Positions 3-38,157 of a DNA stretch of 53,715 nt are shown here, piece by piece. Below the pieces are notes generated by a model. It was not told the origin of the DNA. It did not search any database and saw nothing but the letters and a program-made list of their open reading frames with translations. Source of the stretch: Nitrospirota bacterium (GTDB lineage Bacteria; Nitrospirota; Nitrospiria; Nitrospirales; NS-4). A program made the position numbers and the translations under genes. Every line of letters begins with the position of its first letter. Position 1 is the stretch's first letter. The DNA is taken from NCBI GenBank assembly GCA_005877815.1, contig VBOG01000035.1, positions 1 to 53,715 on the forward strand, given 5' to 3'.

Positions 3-1289
3 AATGAGATCATCTGGATCTGCTCGCAATTCGCCGACGGCATCACGACCGCCATCGGCATCGGCGGCGACGCGTACCCCGGCACCGACTATGTGACGTA
101 CCTCGAAAAGTTCGAGCAGGACTCGCAAACCAAAGCCGTCGTCATCGTCGGCGAGATGGGGGGGGACCTCGAGGAGCGCGCGGCCGAGTGGTTTGGGGCG
201 AAGAAGCGGCGGATCAAATTATTGGCGGTCGTGTCCGGATTCTGTCAGGAAAGTTTACCCAAAGGCATGAAGTTCGGCCACGCCGGTGCGAAGGAAGGGC
301 TGAAGGGCGAGGGCTCGGCTCGGGCGAAGGCCGACGCCTTTAAAAAAGCCGGGGCGATCGTGCCGGATACCTTCGGCGCATTGGGCCCGGCGATCAAGCA
401 AGTCTATGAGGAGTTGCTGAAGAGCGGCCAAGCCAAGCCGATTCCTGAACTCAGCCCTGCCGAGATGCCGAAGCTTCCGAAGAGCGTGGAAGAGAGCATG
501 AAGGCCGGCGAAGTGATGGTGGCACCGCTGGTCAAGACCACGATCAGCGACGACCGTGGTGACGAGCCGCTCTACGACGGCTATCCGGCCTCGGAGTTGA
601 TCAATAAAGGGTACGAGATTCCGCACGTGATCGGGTTGCTGTGGGACAAGCGGCTGATCTCCAAGCAGGAAGCCGAGATTATCAAGCGCATCATGATGTT
701 GTCGGCGGATCACGGGCCGTGCGTCAGCGGCGCCTTGGGCACCATCATCGCGGCCTGCGCCGGCATCGGCATGTCGCAATCCGTCGCCGCCGGGTTGATC
801 ATGATCGGCCCCCGGTTCGGCGGCGCCGTCACCGACGCCGGCCGCTACTTTAAACATGCCGTGGACAACAAGATGTCCGTGGATGAGTTTCTCATCCATA
901 TGAAAAAGAATGTGGGCCCGGTGCCGGGCATCGGCCATCGGGTGAAGAGTCTGCGAAACCCCGACAAGCGCGTGAAGGAGTTGGTCTCCTACGTCAAGAG
1001 CCAGCCGATACCGACGCCGCATCTGGACTTCGCATTGTCCGTCGAAAAAGTGACGTCCGCCAAGAAGGACAATCTGATCCTGAACGTGGACGGCACGATG
1101 GCGGCGGTGCTGGTGGACCTTGGGTTCCCCGTGGACAGCCTGAACGGGTTTTTCATCCTGTCGCGGACCATCGGATTGATCGGACACTGGGTGGACCAGA
1201 AGCGCCAGGAGAGCCGGTTGATCCGTCTCTTCGATTATCTCGTCAACTATGCGGCCCCGAAACGCAGAGAAGTGCCGCCGCTCAAGTAA
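3..1289 (+). CDS. aclA: ATP-citrate lyase alpha/large subunit, C-terminal part (5' truncated by window edge)
   Basis: Open frame continues upstream of the listed ATG to the window edge (NEIIWICSQFADGITTAIGIGGDAYPGTDY...). CoA-ligase-like GHAGA segment followed by a citrate-synthase-like C-terminus (SADHGPCVSGALGTIIAACAG, GIGHRVKS). Confidence 0.9.
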   Translation, partial: NEIIWICSQFADGITTAIGIGGDAYPGTDYVTYLEKFEQDSQTKAVVIVGEMGGDLEERAAEWFGAKKRRIKLLAVVSGFCQESLPKGMKFGHAGAKEGLKGEGSARAKADAFKKAGAIVPDTFGALGPAIKQVYEELLKSGQAKPIPELSPAEMPKLPKSVEESMKAGEVMVAPLVKTTISDDRGDEPLYDGYPASELINKGYEIPHVIGLLWDKRLISKQEAEIIKRIMMLSADHGPCVSGALGTIIAACAGIGMSQSVAAGLIMIGPRFGGAVTDAGRYFKHAVDNKMSVDEFLIHMKKNVGPVPGIGHRVKSLRNPDKRVKELVSYVKSQPIPTPHLDFALSVEKVTSAKKDNLILNVDGTMAAVLVDLGFPVDSLNGFFILSRTIGLIGHWVDQKRQESRLIRLFDYLVNYAAPKRREVPPLK

Positions 1290-1301: not shown

Positions 1302-5805
<4,504 letters not shown>

Positions 5806-5905: not shown

Positions 5906-6625
5906 ATGGACCAGAAAGCATTCGACAGTAACGTTCTTATCGATCAGGAGGAAGTCCTGCGCCCGAAAATGGTGACGGTCGAGATCGCCGGCAAGAAGTA
6001 CGAGGTGCCGGAAGGGATCACCGTCATCAAGGCACTCTGGTACAGCGGGCAGGAAGTGATCCACGGCGTCGGGTGTCTGGGCGGCTATTGCGGCGCGTGC
6101 GCGACGTACTACCGGACGAAGGACGACCCGAAGGTCCGAACCTGCCTCGCGTGCTCCACCGCCGTGGAGGATGGCATGTCCTTCAGCATGATGGCGCCGT
6201 TTCCGGCCCGTAAGGCGACGTATCAGATGGCTGAACTGAAGGACCCCAAGCAGGATCTCTTCAATCTCTATCCGGAAGCGCCGATGTGCCGGAACTGCAA
6301 CGCGTGCACCGAGGCCTGTCCGCAGGGCATTGATGTACGGGACGGCGTCTGGAAGGCGGTCTTCGGTGACTTCAAATCCGTGTCCGAGATGTTCATGGAT
6401 TGCGTGATGTGCGGGCTCTGCACGCCTGTCTGCATCGCCGATATCGCGCCCAATCTCGTGGCACTCTACGCGAGCCGCGCGCAGGGCGCGCACTTCATGG
6501 AGAAGCCGAAGCGTTTGCAGGAGCGTATCGGCGAGATCGAGCAAGGACACTATACCAAGGAATGGGACCGCATCCTCGGCATGAACGACCAGGAGCTGAA
6601 GGACGTCTGCGCAGCCATTAAATAG
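5906..6625 (+). CDS. 2Fe-2S / dicluster 4Fe-4S protein, fumarate reductase / succinate dehydrogenase iron-sulfur-like subunit
   Basis: CLGGYCGACATYY...CLAC plant-type ferredoxin pattern; CRNCNACTEACP and CVMCGLCTPVC CxxCxxCxxxC motifs. Confidence 0.8.
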   Translation: MDQKAFDSNVLIDQEEVLRPKMVTVEIAGKKYEVPEGITVIKALWYSGQEVIHGVGCLGGYCGACATYYRTKDDPKVRTCLACSTAVEDGMSFSMMAPFPARKATYQMAELKDPKQDLFNLYPEAPMCRNCNACTEACPQGIDVRDGVWKAVFGDFKSVSEMFMDCVMCGLCTPVCIADIAPNLVALYASRAQGAHFMEKPKRLQERIGEIEQGHYTKEWDRILGMNDQELKDVCAAIK

Positions 6626-6749: not shown

Positions 6750-8333
6750 ATGCAGCTACTCGCTCTTCAGGAACTTGTCCATAAGACTCGCGATACGCGC
6801 CGTGCGCAGACGCTGCCGAAGTTTCCCGCGAACGAACGCGACACCCTGATCAAGAAGTACCACCCCGATCATCGCGAGAGCGCCTACCGTCCCATCAAAT
6901 TCGGTCCGAACGCCGGTGACATGACGGTGCGCGAGCTGGCCGCCTTGCTCGAAGGCGAGAGCCCCGTCCCTGCCGATCTCGATCTCACGCCGGCGTACAC
7001 CGTAGACGTGCTGGTGGTGGGCGGGGGCGGAGCCGGATGCGCGGCAGCCTTGCATGCTCACGCCCATGGCGCGAAGGTCATGCTCGCGACGAAACTTCGT
7101 CTGGGCGATTCGAACACCGTCATGGCGCAGGGCGGGATTCAGATCGCGATCACCAATGAGGACAGCCCGGTCCAGCACTTCCTGGATACGCTCAAGGGCG
7201 GTCATATGAAAAACGACCACCTGCTCCTGAAGACGATGGTCGAGGAGGGACCATCCATCGCGAAGTGGCTGCTTGATCTCGGCGTGCTGTTCGATCGCGA
7301 CGCGGACGGCAACCTTCACGTCAAGAAAGGCGGCGGGAGTTCGAAGCCCCGGCTGCTGACCTGTTCCGACTATACCGGCCTTGAGATCATGCGGGTGCTG
7401 AAGGACGAGGTGCTGAACCAGAAGATTCAGCTCCTGGAGTTCAGCGCCGCGGTCGAACTGCTCAGCGATGAGCAAGGCCGGTGCAGCGGGGCCGTGCTGC
7501 AGGACTTGGACAACAAGCGCTTCCTGCCGGTGGCGGCCAAAACGGTGATCCTTGCGACGGGAGGCATCGGGCGGCTGCACATTCAGGGCTTTCCCACTAG
7601 CAACCATTTCGGCGCCACAGGGGACGCGCTTCCCATGTCCTATCGTCTCGGCGCCAAGCTGCTCCAGATTGATACCTTCCAATACCATCCCACCGGCGCG
7701 GTCTATCCGGAGCAACTCGTCGGCGCCTTGGTGACGGAGGGCATCCGGTCGGAAGGCGGCCATCTCGTCAATGCGAAGGGCGAGCGCTTTGTGAATGAGC
7801 TCGACACTCGAGACGTCGTGTCGTCGTCCATCATCCGGGAGTGTGAAGAAGGGCGGGGAGTCCGCACGGCAACGGGCCGTCTGGGCGTGTGGCTGGATAC
7901 GCCGCTACTCGATGTGGAATCAGGACCCGGCACGCTGGAGAAACATTTTCCGGCGATGGTCCGCCAATACAAACGGTACGGCCTGGATATCACCAAGGAT
8001 CCCGTGCTCATCTATCCGACGCTGCATTATCAAAACGGCGGGGTGCAGATTGACGTGCACGGCGAGTCCGGCGTGCCCAACCTCTTCGTGGCGGGGGAGG
8101 CCTCAGGCGGGCTGCATGGCCGGAACCGTCTGATGGGCAATTCACTGCTGGACCTCATGGTGTACGGCAAGCGCGCGGGCACGGCCACGGCCACGCGCGC
8201 CCAGTCGATGTCGCACGGCAGGCTGACGCTCGATCATCTGCGGCGTTTCCGCGATGAGGCGCGCAAGCACGGCGCCTCGCTCGAGACTCATTCGCCGATG
8301 CTGTTTCCCGATTACGTCAGGAAAGAGGCCTGA
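6750..8333 (+). CDS. FAD-dependent fumarate reductase / succinate dehydrogenase flavoprotein-like subunit
   Basis: VLVVGGGGAGCAAALHAHAHG FAD motif; TVMAQGGIQ, FQYHPTGAVYP, TRDVVSSSI, LHYQNGGV and GRNRLMGNSLLDL match FrdA/SdhA catalytic segments. Confidence 0.88.
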   Translation: MQLLALQELVHKTRDTRRAQTLPKFPANERDTLIKKYHPDHRESAYRPIKFGPNAGDMTVRELAALLEGESPVPADLDLTPAYTVDVLVVGGGGAGCAAALHAHAHGAKVMLATKLRLGDSNTVMAQGGIQIAITNEDSPVQHFLDTLKGGHMKNDHLLLKTMVEEGPSIAKWLLDLGVLFDRDADGNLHVKKGGGSSKPRLLTCSDYTGLEIMRVLKDEVLNQKIQLLEFSAAVELLSDEQGRCSGAVLQDLDNKRFLPVAAKTVILATGGIGRLHIQGFPTSNHFGATGDALPMSYRLGAKLLQIDTFQYHPTGAVYPEQLVGALVTEGIRSEGGHLVNAKGERFVNELDTRDVVSSSIIRECEEGRGVRTATGRLGVWLDTPLLDVESGPGTLEKHFPAMVRQYKRYGLDITKDPVLIYPTLHYQNGGVQIDVHGESGVPNLFVAGEASGGLHGRNRLMGNSLLDLMVYGKRAGTATATRAQSMSHGRLTLDHLRRFRDEARKHGASLETHSPMLFPDYVRKEA

Positions 8334-8402: not shown

Positions 8403-9602
8403 ATGAACATTCATGAATTCCAGGCCAAGCAGTTATTCTCGCAGTTCGATATTCCGGTGCCCCGCGGCAAGGAAGTGAAGAACCCGGTGGCGGCCGAGAA
8501 GTGGGCCGCCAAGCTGAATGCCCCGGTCTACGTCGTCAAGGCGCAGATCCATGCCGGCGGACGGGGGAAGGCGGGCGGCGTCAAGCTGACGAAGAACCGC
8601 GACGAAGTGCCGGGGCTGATGAAGGAGATGCTCGGCAAGAAACTGGTCACGCACCAGACGGGGCCCAAGGGACGAAAGGTGCGGCGCGTGCTGATCGAAG
8701 AGGGCGCGGGGATCGCCAAGGAACTGTACCTGAGCCTTCTCGTGGACCGCGATTCGGGGCGACCGGTGTTTATTGCCAGTACCGAAGGCGGCATGGAGAT
8801 CGAGGAGGTCGCGGCCCATACGCCGGAAAAGGTCTTGCAGGAGGCGATTGACCCCGCGGTGGGGTTCCAGGGCCACAACGGCCGGAACCTTGCGTTCAGC
8901 CTCGGCCTGCCGGCATTGGAGCCGTCCATCGTCAATCCGTTCATTGCCCTGCTGGGCAACCTCTACCGGCTGTTCATGGAGAAAAATGCCTCCTTGGTCG
9001 AGATCAATCCGCTCGTCATCACGACCGACAAGCGGTTGATCGCCCTGGACGGCAAAGTGTCCTTCGACGACAACGCGTTGTTCAAGCATGCCGACGTCCA
9101 GGCGTTCCGCGATCTGAATGAAGAAGAGCCGTTGGAGATCGAGGCGGCGAAGAACAACCTGAACTACGTCAAACTGGACGGCAACATCGGATGCATGGTG
9201 AACGGGGCGGGTCTTGCCATGGCGACGATGGACGTGATCAAATTGGCCGGCAGTGAGCCCGCAAACTTTTTGGATGTCGGTGGGGGCGCCACGAAGGAAA
9301 CGGTGGCGGCCGGTTTTCGCATTCTGTTAAAAGACCGTAACGTGAAGGGCATCTTCATCAATATCTTCGGTGGGATTGTCCGGTGCGAGCGGATCGCCCA
9401 TGGCGTCATCGATGCGGCCAAGGAAGTGGCGATCAAGCTGCCGGTCGTGGTCCGTCTGCAGGGCACGAATGCGGAGGAAGGACGGAAGTTGCTGCAGGAA
9501 TCCGGCCTGAAAGTGGAAGTGGCCACCGATCTTTGGGAAGCGGCGCAGAAAATCGTGGCGGTGACCGGTAAGAAACGCAAAAAGGCCGAGGCTGCCGCGT
9601 GA
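8403..9602 (+). CDS. sucC: Succinyl-CoA synthetase (ADP-forming) beta subunit
   Basis: MNIHEFQAKQLF...; VKAQIHAGGRGKAGGVKL; FLDVGGGA; INIFGGIVRCERIAHGV. Confidence 0.95.
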   Translation: MNIHEFQAKQLFSQFDIPVPRGKEVKNPVAAEKWAAKLNAPVYVVKAQIHAGGRGKAGGVKLTKNRDEVPGLMKEMLGKKLVTHQTGPKGRKVRRVLIEEGAGIAKELYLSLLVDRDSGRPVFIASTEGGMEIEEVAAHTPEKVLQEAIDPAVGFQGHNGRNLAFSLGLPALEPSIVNPFIALLGNLYRLFMEKNASLVEINPLVITTDKRLIALDGKVSFDDNALFKHADVQAFRDLNEEEPLEIEAAKNNLNYVKLDGNIGCMVNGAGLAMATMDVIKLAGSEPANFLDVGGGATKETVAAGFRILLKDRNVKGIFINIFGGIVRCERIAHGVIDAAKEVAIKLPVVVRLQGTNAEEGRKLLQESGLKVEVATDLWEAAQKIVAVTGKKRKKAEAAA

Positions 9603-9651: not shown

Positions 9652-10143
9652 ATGACCGCCGAAGAGTGGTTCAAGGAATTCTATCAGCGATATTACTTTC
9701 AGAAGTCATTCGACGGGCACACGCTCGACCAACTGGACAAAAAACATTGGCACGTCGCCGATTGGGCGAAGGCCATGGACGCGTTCCTGCATGTCATGGC
9801 GGCCGACCTGCGTTTCTCGGTCGTTCCCCAAAGCAAGGACCGGGTCGAGCATCGGTGGAAACAGGACGCAGAGGAAATCCTGGTCGTCAATGAAAACGAC
9901 GGTCGGCGCGTTTCGAAAGAGATCGGGACGATGTGCAAGGACCCTTGCCGTCTCAAGGTCCTCGTCACCTACGTGCCAGATGAAGGCTTCGTCGGGCACG
10001 CCATGGAGCTTGCCAAAAAGGTTCGCGAGGACATTGACGAGGTGGGCGCGTTCGAAGGTGAATTCTTGCTGGTGGTGGGTGGGACGGAGATGGACTGGAC
10101 GGCGATCAAGTCCGTCGCAAAGACGCAAAAAGGATCATCATGA
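9652..10143 (+). CDS. Protein of unknown function encoded between sucC and sucD
   Basis: 163 aa ORF with ATG start; ATGA overlap with sucD suggests translational coupling. Region [19 protein letters not shown]...[17 protein letters not shown] is loosely reminiscent of PD-(D/E)XK-like folds. Confidence 0.8.
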
Positions 10144-11024
10144 GCATACTTGTTGATAAATCGACGCGGGTGGTGGTGCAGGGCATTACCGGCAAGGAAG
10201 GTTCGTTTCACGCGACGCAATGCAAGGCCTATGGCACGCAGGTTGTCGCCGGGGTGACGCCGGGTAAAGCGGGGCAGGACGTGGAGGGCATTCCGGTCTT
10301 TAATACGGTGCACGACGCCGTGAAGAAGACGTCGTGCGATACCTCGCTGATCTTCGTGCCGCCGCCGTTTGCCGCCGATGCGATCCTCGAAGCCGCCGAT
10401 GCCGGCATCCGATTAGTGATCTGCATCACGGAGGGCATTCCCGTCAATGACATGGTGAAGGTCAAGCGCGCGCTGGCGGGGCGGGACGTGCGACTGATCG
10501 GTCCCAACTGTCCGGGGATCATCACGGCGGATGAGTGCAAGATCGGGATCATGCCCGGCTTCATCCACAAGAAGGGCCGTATCGGTGTGATCTCGCGGAG
10601 CGGCACGCTGACCTATGAAGCGGTCAATCAACTGACGAACCTGGGACTGGGCGAAACAACGTGCATCGGCATCGGCGGCGATCCGATCATCGGCACGGGA
10701 TACATTGATCTGCTCGGAATGTTCGAGAAAGATCCGGAACCGGAAGCGGTGGTCATGATCGGCGAGATCGGCGGCGATGCCGAAGATCGCGCGGCGGCCT
10801 TCATCAAGGAGCATGTCCGAAAGCCCGTCATCGGCTTCATCGCCGGCATCACCGCGCCGCCCGGCCGACGGATGGGCCATGCAGGGGCCATCATCACGGG
10901 AGGGAAGGGCACCGCGTCCGAAAAAATGGCCATACTGGAAGCCGCCGGGGTTCGTGTCGTGAAGAACCCTGCCGAGATTGGCAAGACCGTGCAGGAGGCG
11001 CTCAGTCCACGTGGCGGGGTGTGA
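10140..11024 (+). CDS. sucD: Succinyl-CoA synthetase alpha subunit
   Basis: [73 protein letters not shown]. Confidence 0.96.
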
Positions 11025-36516: not shown

Positions 36517-38157
36517 ATGCCCGCACAACGTTCGCACACGACACGCAAGACCTTGTCCGCCGTCGATTTCCTTGTGATTGGAAGCGGGGTGGCCGGATTG
36601 CGCGCGGCGATCGGGTTGAGTCGCGCCGGCCGGGTCATGATTCTCACGAAGGGCATCACGGCGGAAGGCAGCTCGATTTATGCCCAGGGCGGGGTCGCCG
36701 TCGCCCCCGAGGAAGAGGACATTGCGCTCCACCGCGAGGATACCATCCGCGCGGGCAAAGGGTTGTGTCGTGAGGAAACGGTGCAAGTCCTGGTCGCCGA
36801 GGGGCCGGCCCGCATCCAAGAGCTGATTGATTGGGGCGCCCGTTTCGATAGGGAAGGGACGGGATATGCATTCGCGCGCGAGGCGGCGCACAGCCGCGAC
36901 CGCATCATGCGCGCCGGAGGGGATGCGACGGGGACCGAGATTGTTCGCGTACTGCTGAAGCGGGCTCGGGGGTTGAGGCGGATTGTGTGGAACGATCATC
37001 ATTTTACGATTGACCTTCTGCTCGACCGCAATGGGCGTTGCGCGGGCGCGCTCGTTCTGGACGAAGCCTCGGGAGCACTCTCACCGGTTCCGGCAAAAGC
37101 CGTCGTGCTTGCGACGGGAGGCGCCGGCCAGATCTATTCGCGGACTACGAATCCTCCGAGCGCGACAGGGGACGGCATCGCCATGGGGTACCGGGCCGGC
37201 GCGCTGGTCGAAGACATGGAATTCGTCCAGTTCCATCCAACCGCGCTCTACATGCCGGCCACTCCGCAGTTCCTGCTGTCGGAAGCGATGCGCGGAGAAG
37301 GCGCGATCCTGCGCAATGTCAAAGGCGAGGCATTCATGAAGCGGTACCATGAGCTGGCGGAAGTCGCGCCCCGCGATATCGTGTCCCGGGCGATCTGGAA
37401 TGAGATGCAGCTCACCGGCGCGCGCCATGTCTATCTCGACGTGACCCATCTCGGGGCGGACTTCATCAAGGCTCGCTTCCCGACGATTTACGCGACGTGT
37501 TTACGATATGACGTGGATATCACCGAAGAACTCATTCCGGTCTGCCCCGGCGCCCACTATATGATGGGCGGCGTCTGGACCGACGTCCATGGCGCCACCA
37601 GCGTGCCTGGATTGTTTGCGGCGGGGGAGGTGGCCTGCACCGGCGTCCATGGAGCGAACCGGCTGGCCAGCAACTCGTTACTCGAAGGTCTCGTCTTCGC
37701 GGCTCGCGTGGTGGATGCTGCGGTTGAGTCCGCGGCGAAGGTCCCGAAGGACCGGTCTTATGCGGAGCAGTTAGTGGTGGCGAACGGCCATGGCAGTCCC
37801 AAAGGGTCGTCGCCGGATATGGAAAAGATCCTCAACTCGTTTCGCCGGTTGATGTGGGAAAACGTCGGCATCATCCGAAGCGGCGAAGGACTTCGGACGG
37901 CCATCTCACGGGTTGCAGAATGGGATGCGCAAGTGAAAAACTGGTGCCGCACTCGCCGTGAGTGGGAAATCTGGAACATGATCACGGCAGGCCGCCTGAT
38001 CGCCGTCGCGGCGCTTCACCGCACTCACAGCGTCGGGGCGCATTTCCGGTCGGATGACACTGGCGAGCGGCCGGTCGAATGGGAGCAGCACATTCAACTG
38101 GAGGCAGTTGCCGGAGAGGGAGGAATCGAGCCGGGAAGGCGGATTCTGAAGACGTGA
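36517..38157 (+). CDS. nadB: L-aspartate oxidase
   Basis: DFLVIGSGVAGLRAAIGL; GSSIYAQGGVAVA; FVQFHPTALY; APRDIVSRAIWNEM; HYMMGGVWTD; CTGVHGANRLASNSLLEGLVF. Confidence 0.95.
   Translation: MPAQRSHTTRKTLSAVDFLVIGSGVAGLRAAIGLSRAGRVMILTKGITAEGSSIYAQGGVAVAPEEEDIALHREDTIRAGKGLCREETVQVLVAEGPARIQELIDWGARFDREGTGYAFAREAAHSRDRIMRAGGDATGTEIVRVLLKRARGLRRIVWNDHHFTIDLLLDRNGRCAGALVLDEASGALSPVPAKAVVLATGGAGQIYSRTTNPPSATGDGIAMGYRAGALVEDMEFVQFHPTALYMPATPQFLLSEAMRGEGAILRNVKGEAFMKRYHELAEVAPRDIVSRAIWNEMQLTGARHVYLDVTHLGADFIKARFPTIYATCLRYDVDITEELIPVCPGAHYMMGGVWTDVHGATSVPGLFAAGEVACTGVHGANRLASNSLLEGLVFAARVVDAAVESAAKVPKDRSYAEQLVVANGHGSPKGSSPDMEKILNSFRRLMWENVGIIRSGEGLRTAISRVAEWDAQVKNWCRTRREWEIWNMITAGRLIAVAALHRTHSVGAHFRSDDTGERPVEWEQHIQLEAVAGEGGIEPGRRILKT

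What the first reader, a model, noticed from the sequence alone, without database searches (positions are those of the whole stretch)
6750..8333. Fumarate-reductase-like flavoprotein appears to lack the covalent-FAD histidine
Seen: the segment aligning with the canonical RSHTVAAQGG flavinylation motif reads DSNTVMAQGGIQ, i.e. Asn at the His position, while the catalytic HPTG, TRD, HYQNGG and GRNRL segments are kept. Known: covalent FAD on this His is typical of SdhA/FrdA, and replacing it in E. coli FrdA impairs succinate oxidation more than fumarate reduction. Inference: the enzyme may be biased to fumarate reduction, fitting its place in a reductive TCA cluster.
Basis: partly seen in the sequence, partly recalled or inferred. 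Interest (0 to 1): 0.6.

Follow-up and report, generated by a model that had tools for sequence, protein, structure and literature searches.

The report
Soluble fumarate reductase, FAD not anchored
A nitrite-oxidiser-type bacterium (Nitrospirota) carries, inside its carbon-fixation gene cluster, a two-subunit fumarate reductase that lacks the histidine which normally bonds FAD to the enzyme; the lack is a fixed trait of a whole enzyme clade, and suggests a one-way, non-membrane enzyme that makes succinate for CO2 fixation.

Summary
ORF 6750-8333 (527 aa) has Asn122 where E. coli FrdA/SdhA have the flavinylated His; the catalytic His/Thr/Glu/Arg/His/Arg set is intact. It is not a local mutation: Asn is at this site in all 149 related proteins that cover it and in all 36 members of one fully supported clade, spanning Nitrospirota, betaproteobacteria, an alphaproteobacterium and a fusobacterium. 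Canonical SdhA proteins of related Nitrospirota keep His.

The enzyme differs from complex II in more ways: about 83 extra N-terminal residues, no C-terminal helical domain, loss of the active-site Phe116, a partner (FrdB, 5906-6625) with a fourth Cys at the third cluster, and no anchor gene in the window cluster. It lies in an ACL-aconitase-IDH-FrdB-FrdA-SucC-SucD cluster. Relatives sit beside fumarase, aspartase, NuoF or Flx-Hdr genes.

Best reading: a soluble reductase with non-covalent FAD, working one way (fumarate to succinate) in the reductive TCA cycle, probably fed by NAD(P)H or ferredoxin rather than quinol. The family was glimpsed before (Leptospirillum FrdAB, called covalent and membrane-bound; Nitrospira moscoviensis, annotated 'SdhA or NadB').

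The parts
6750..8333 (+). frdA-like gene: flavoprotein of a soluble fumarate reductase (527 aa)
   Evidence: PF00890 over 86-466, 283 bits; clade 100/100 apart from SdhA/FrdA and NadB
7113..7115 (+). codon of Asn122, at the position of the flavinylated His of E. coli FrdA/SdhA
   Evidence: alignment, Asn in 149/149 relatives covering the site
7329..7331 (+). codon of Gly194, at the position of FrdA Phe116 / NadB Glu121
   Evidence: alignment; Gly, Pro or Ala in the rest of the clade
6750..6998 (+). N-terminal extension of about 83 residues with no Pfam match, conserved through the clade (xHPDyR...GpNxG)
7686..7688 (+). codon of His313 (YHPTG); the other catalytic residues are Thr329, Glu330, Arg354, His426, Arg460
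5906..6625 (+). frdB-like gene: Fe-S partner, one [2Fe-2S] and two predicted [4Fe-4S] clusters (Cys57,62,65,83; 128,131,134,138; 166,169,172,176)
   Evidence: all 12 Cys in 103/103 homologues; Cys169 is Val/Ile in E. coli FrdB/SdhB
93..1289 (+). ATP-citrate lyase subunit carrying the citryl-CoA lyase domain (C-terminal part)
   Evidence: PF00285 and citryl-CoA lyase models
1302..3548 (+). aconitase of the cluster
   Evidence: translation; conserved neighbour
3553..5805 (+). monomeric-type isocitrate dehydrogenase of the cluster
   Evidence: translation; conserved neighbour
8403..9602 (+). succinyl-CoA synthetase beta (sucC), next step of the cycle
   Evidence: translation; conserved neighbour
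10140..11024 (+). succinyl-CoA synthetase alpha (sucD)
   Evidence: translation; conserved neighbour

Best explanation
FrdB-FrdA is a cytoplasmic two-subunit fumarate reductase of the reductive TCA cycle. FAD sits non-covalently in FrdA because Asn122 replaces the bonding His (shown: the substitution; inferred: no bond). Electrons enter through the FrdB clusters ([2Fe-2S] plus two predicted [4Fe-4S]) and reduce FAD, which reduces fumarate at the conserved His/Arg/Thr/Glu site; succinate passes to the neighbouring SucCD. The low-potential flavin makes the reaction effectively one-way (inferred from the literature on relatives). No anchor gene is encoded in the window cluster, so the donor is probably a soluble low-potential one, NAD(P)H or ferredoxin, rather than quinol (inferred). 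A canonical membrane-type SdhA elsewhere in the genome would serve succinate oxidation.
For: Asn in 149/149 relatives with all catalytic residues kept; one clade of 36 proteins, support 100/100, all with Asn. Cluster ACL-Acn-(Idh)-FrdB-FrdA-SucC-SucD is conserved across Nitrospiria, and FrdB-FrdA-SucC-SucD also with CCS/CCL-type genes in family f22. FrdA hits at E<1e-140 in 136 of 141 genomes of families f1-f3, and orthologues in all 20 genomes of f5-f13 and in f14, f19, f22 (my count from the table). Fumarate as substrate: clade relatives lie beside both fumarase subunits (L209) and in an operon starting with aspartate ammonia-lyase in Ilyobacter. NADH input: NuoF directly after FrdB-FrdA in four proteobacterial plasmids; HdrB-HdrA-MvhD-Flx genes before FrdB-FrdA in Ilyobacter and in f19; FlxA-type NAD-binding and Fe-S genes right after SucD in f14. 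No transmembrane-like stretch in FrdA or FrdB: best 19-residue hydropathy means 1.43 and 1.67. Non-covalent relatives reduce fumarate only (PMC9557727); the bond adds about 100 mV and is needed for succinate oxidation (PMC10238741).
Against: No member of this clade is known to me to have been assayed. The window cluster holds no NADH-input gene. One relative (L209) has a b561-type cytochrome with a 4Fe-4S domain nearby, and Leptospirillia-type loci have a PsiE-like membrane protein just upstream, so a quinone link is possible in parts of the clade. Family f4 and several f21 genomes have ATP-citrate lyase but no such FrdA, so the cycle can run without it. The AlphaFold model was too poor (mean pLDDT 56) to examine the pocket.
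Confidence: 0.72

Rival explanations
1. A reversible or membrane-bound enzyme: FrdBA docks on an unidentified anchor and exchanges electrons with menaquinone, as proposed for Leptospirillum FrdAB (type E with orf1 as anchor).
For: FrdB has the extra Cys at cluster 3 that type E enzymes also have (recalled); PMC2607301 proposes orf1 as anchor; L209 has a cytochrome b561/4Fe-4S protein three genes downstream of FrdB.
Against: orf1 is a PsiE-family-like protein (23.8 and 26.3 bits, cut-off 23.9) seen between Ccl and FrdB in the f22 loci examined; Nitrospiria clusters have none. No membrane or CCG gene in the window cluster. Loss of the FAD bond argues against succinate oxidation.
Confidence: 0.15
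2. It is an L-aspartate oxidase (NadB), as one automatic annotation suggests.
For: NadB also has non-covalent FAD and Ser/Asn at this site; TIGR00551 matches with 306.7 bits.
Against: Below the 452.75 cut-off; a true NadB (528.7 bits) lies in the same window at 36517-38157; NadB Glu121 is Gly here; separate clade; Fe-S partner gene, which NadB lacks.
Confidence: 0.02
3. It reduces another unsaturated acid, not fumarate.
For: Phe116 of FrdA, which lines the substrate site (recalled), is replaced by Gly.
Against: Both carboxylate-binding sets are kept; neighbours are fumarate-cycle genes.
Confidence: 0.08
4. FAD is covalently bound through another residue or by ApbE.
For: None found.
Against: No SGAT-like ApbE motif in FrdA.
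Confidence: 0.03

Closest known systems
FrdAB of Leptospirillum ferriphilum (PMC2607301), same gene order ccs-acn-ccl-orf1-frd-suc
   Same: L208 and the other f22 loci have this gene order and an FrdA 51-56% identical, with Asn at the site, inside the same clade
   Different: Described there as covalent-FAD, membrane-associated type E with orf1 as anchor; the sequences here do not support the covalent FAD, and orf1 is absent from the Nitrospiria clusters
Flx-Hdr-linked fumarate reductase of Pseudoclostridium thermosuccinogenes (succinate operon, PMC7282089; its reference 15 is a 2019 preprint on a novel fumarate reductase potentially in electron bifurcation)
   Same: Ilyobacter and f19 members of the clade have the same kind of operon
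   Different: The window cluster has no Flx-Hdr genes; the P. thermosuccinogenes protein itself was not compared
Highly expressed Nitrospira moscoviensis flavoprotein NITMOv2_0695, annotated SdhA or NadB (PMC6606698)
   Same: Very probably the orthologue (N. moscoviensis locus L070, 79-80% identity), judged by chromosome position only
   Different: There described as a single gene; here shown to sit beside FrdB and SucCD
TfrAB, thiol:fumarate reductase of methanogens
   Same: Best NCBIfam match of FrdA (356 bits); soluble, non-covalent FAD (recalled)
   Different: Far below the 718-bit cut-off; no CCG domain in FrdB
Soluble NADH-dependent fumarate reductase of Hydrogenobacter thermophilus (Miura 2008, seen as a citation only)
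   Same: Soluble reductase of a reductive TCA cycle
   Different: Five subunits (recalled); sequence not compared

Membership tests
Complex II flavoprotein (SdhA/FrdA) | His for covalent FAD | tested here: not met
   Asn122; 149/149 relatives Asn
Complex II flavoprotein (SdhA/FrdA) | C-terminal helical domain (PF02910) | tested here: not met
   no match; 68 residues (median) after the Arg390 column against 155-212 in SdhA, FrdA and NadB
Complex II flavoprotein (SdhA/FrdA) | family score TIGR01812 | tested here: not met
   298.8 bits, cut-off 567.3
Complex II flavoprotein (SdhA/FrdA) | catalytic His/Thr/Glu/Arg/His/Arg | tested here: met
Complex II | membrane anchor subunit | tested here: not met
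   none in the window cluster or the conserved Nitrospiria neighbourhood; an anchor encoded elsewhere is not excluded
Thiol:fumarate reductase TfrAB | TfrA model NF004900 | tested here: not met
   356.3 bits, cut-off 718
Thiol:fumarate reductase TfrAB | CCG domain in the B subunit | tested here: not met
   no PF02754 in FrdB; the CCG proteins of the genome are on other contigs
L-aspartate oxidase NadB | model TIGR00551 and Glu121 | tested here: not met
   306.7 bits against 452.75; Gly at Glu121
Type E SQR | fourth Cys at cluster 3 of the B subunit | tested here: met
   Cys169 invariant in 103/103; link to type E recalled
Type E SQR | CCG-motif SdhE-type subunit in the locus | tested here: not met
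Flx-Hdr / NuoF-linked FrdBA clade | falls in one clade with such FrdA proteins | tested here: met
   100/100
Flx-Hdr / NuoF-linked FrdBA clade | NADH-input genes in the operon | tested here: not met
   none in the window cluster; an orphan NuoF and [2Fe-2S] ferredoxin lie on contig C86
Soluble fumarate reductase with non-covalent FAD | FAD bound non-covalently, fumarate reduced | not testable with these tools
   needs purified enzyme

The most novel reading that the evidence does not exclude
Nitrospira and relatives drive the fumarate step of the reductive TCA cycle with NADH, through FrdBA fed by the orphan NuoF-ferredoxin pair, as a one-way valve kept apart from a complex II that runs oxidatively; the cost of autotrophy in nitrite oxidisers would then be higher than quinol-based schemes assume.
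Probability: 0.25. Interest if true: 0.65.

Novelty: new variant of a known kind. Interest (0 to 1): 0.48.

Why it matters
Nitrospira are major nitrite oxidisers and fix CO2 by the reductive TCA cycle, but which enzyme makes succinate has been unclear: the N. moscoviensis transcriptome paper describes this gene (probably) as 'SdhA or NadB', and the Leptospirillum paper describes its relative as covalent and membrane-bound. Naming it as a distinct soluble reductase clade changes the expected electron donor (NAD(P)H or ferredoxin instead of quinol) and so the energy budget, and the clade offers natural FrdA enzymes in which the role of the FAD bond can be tested by placing or removing one residue.

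Tried and rejected
AlphaFold2 model of FrdA: mean pLDDT 56 because the permitted alignment was shallow (77-91% identity); not used, no fold search run. Orphan NuoF as dedicated partner: the FrdBA-linked NuoF of proteobacteria fall on the same side of a 100/100 branch as the orphan Nitrospirota NuoF, apart from the side holding E. coli NuoF and the genome's second NuoF, which is suggestive; but genome G311 (family f4), in which no FrdA orthologue was found, still has the orphan NuoF, so the link is not exclusive. SdhE flavinylation factor: not found in 8 of 8 genomes, including ones with canonical SdhA, so uninformative. NadB and TfrA identity rejected on score cut-offs. Leptospirillum orf1 as a general anchor rejected: PsiE-like and absent from Nitrospiria clusters.

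Full report
What is there. The window is from a Nitrospirota genome; its nearest relatives are Nitrospirales/Nitrospiraceae metagenome assemblies. It starts inside a reductive TCA cluster: the citryl-CoA-lyase-bearing subunit of ATP-citrate lyase, aconitase, monomeric-type isocitrate dehydrogenase, FrdB, FrdA, SucC, an unknown 163-aa ORF, and SucD. ORF 6750-8333 encodes a 527-aa protein with the FAD_binding_2 domain (283 bits).

Check of the observation. In an alignment with E. coli FrdA, SdhA and NadB fetched from K-12, Asn122 lies exactly on the His that carries FAD in FrdA and SdhA. The catalytic residues are all present. In relatives from two collections the site is Asn in 149 of 149 sequences that cover it, Ser or Thr follows, and AQGG or AEGG is kept; nine full-length canonical SdhA proteins from related genomes have RSHS(V/N)AAQGG. 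The set contains some genomes twice, so the number of independent genomes is smaller; the non-redundant tree has 36 members, all Asn.

It is a separate clade. A maximum-likelihood tree (IQ-TREE, 59 proteins) puts the FrdA-like proteins of Nitrospirota, Ilyobacter, Cupriavidus, Paraburkholderia and Pseudoroseomonas on one side of a 100/100 branch, apart from SdhA/FrdA and NadB, which are themselves separated. The tree is unrooted and TfrA was not in it. No NCBIfam model passes its cut-off for this FrdA among the best 25 shown (best: TfrA 356 of 718; sdhA_frdA 299 of 567; nadB 307 of 453). Clade marks: about 83 extra N-terminal residues without a Pfam match, no Succ_DH_flav_C domain, and Gly (or Pro, Ala) at the site of FrdA Phe116 and NadB Glu121.

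The partner. FrdB (239 aa) keeps the four [2Fe-2S] cysteines and two CxxCxxCxxxC motifs; all 12 cysteines are invariant in 103 homologues. In E. coli FrdB and SdhB the second cysteine of the last motif is Val or Ile, giving [3Fe-4S]; here it is Cys169, so a [4Fe-4S] cluster is predicted. No stretch looks like a membrane helix in FrdA or FrdB. Some lineages have two FrdB genes in a row.

Context. Among 100 related loci, the commonest order is AclA-Acn-Idh-FrdB-FrdA-SucC-SucD; the FrdB-FrdA-SucC-SucD block persists into other classes, and in family f22 it follows citryl-CoA synthetase, aconitase and citryl-CoA lyase. By my count from the table, 136 of 141 genomes of families f1-f3, 20 of 20 of f5-f13, 4 of 4 of f14, 3 of 3 of f19 and 20 of 21 of f22 have it; most other families lack it. 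The association with the reductive cycle is not perfect: two f4 genomes and several f21 genomes have ATP-citrate lyase without it.

Substrate and donor. Outside the reductive cycle, relatives stand next to other fumarate genes: both fumarase subunits in L209 and aspartate ammonia-lyase in Ilyobacter. They also stand next to NADH-input modules of three kinds: NuoF in four proteobacterial plasmids, HdrB-HdrA-MvhD-Flx in Ilyobacter and as a second copy in f19, and FlxA-type with two Fe-S proteins after SucD in f14. The window cluster has none of these. Its genome has an orphan NuoF with a [2Fe-2S] ferredoxin and an IscA-like gene on contig C86, about 4 kb from malate dehydrogenase; a like trio is reported as highly expressed in N. 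moscoviensis (PMC6606698). In a NuoF tree the FrdBA-linked NuoF fall on the side of the orphan type, but the orphan NuoF also occurs in an f4 genome where no FrdA orthologue was found. The NADH proposal is therefore a lead, not a result.

Function. The covalent bond raises the FAD potential by about 100 mV and is required for succinate oxidation in complex II (PMC10238741); related enzymes with non-covalent FAD reduce fumarate and do not oxidise succinate (PMC9557727). Carried over to this clade, FrdBA would be a one-way reductase. That fits its cluster and leaves succinate oxidation to the canonical SdhA, of which a C-terminal fragment lies at the end of contig C68.

Earlier sightings. Leptospirillum FrdAB was described in 2008 as covalent-FAD, type E and membrane-anchored through orf1 (PMC2607301); here orf1 is PsiE-like, absent from Nitrospiria clusters, and the His is absent. 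A highly expressed N. moscoviensis flavoprotein, probably the orthologue, was annotated as SdhA or NadB (PMC6606698). A Flx-Hdr-linked fumarate reductase was proposed in P. thermosuccinogenes (PMC7282089). I found no biochemical study of the clade in the papers searched.

Verdict. Observation confirmed; interpretation right in direction but set in the wrong family. A real, clade-wide trait of an uncharacterised soluble fumarate reductase; new variant of a known kind.

Noticed in passing
9652-10143: 163-aa ORF between sucC and sucD with no Pfam or NCBIfam match and no tblastn match (E<=0.01) in any other locus fetched; most relatives have sucC and sucD nearly adjacent.
   Followed up: partly
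36517-38157: Canonical L-aspartate oxidase (NadB, TIGR00551 528.7 bits) in the same window; useful contrast to FrdA.
   Followed up: yes
L220 8977-10593: Ilyobacter polytropus pILYOP01: aspartase, HdrB, HdrC, HdrA, MvhD, Flx genes, FrdB, FrdA in one run, a candidate NADH-driven, possibly bifurcating fumarate reductase.
   Followed up: partly
L203 170-9175, L210 202-8680: Nitrospirota family f19 has a second FrdBA copy with Hdr-Flx genes besides the reductive TCA copy.
   Followed up: partly
L193, L194, L195, L199, L200: Two consecutive FrdB-like genes before FrdA; role of the second unknown.
   Followed up: no
G311, G357 (f4); G017, G026, G042, G049, G059, G069 (f21): ATP-citrate lyase present but no FrdA orthologue found; these may use complex II or another reductase.
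   Followed up: no
L227 3450-5525: Orphan NuoF, [2Fe-2S] ferredoxin and IscA-like gene in the window's own genome, resembling the highly expressed N. moscoviensis trio.
   Followed up: partly
L209 7486-12269: FrdA-FrdB-FumB-FumA followed by a 4Fe-4S/cytochrome b561 protein: a possible quinone-linked variant of the clade.
   Followed up: partly
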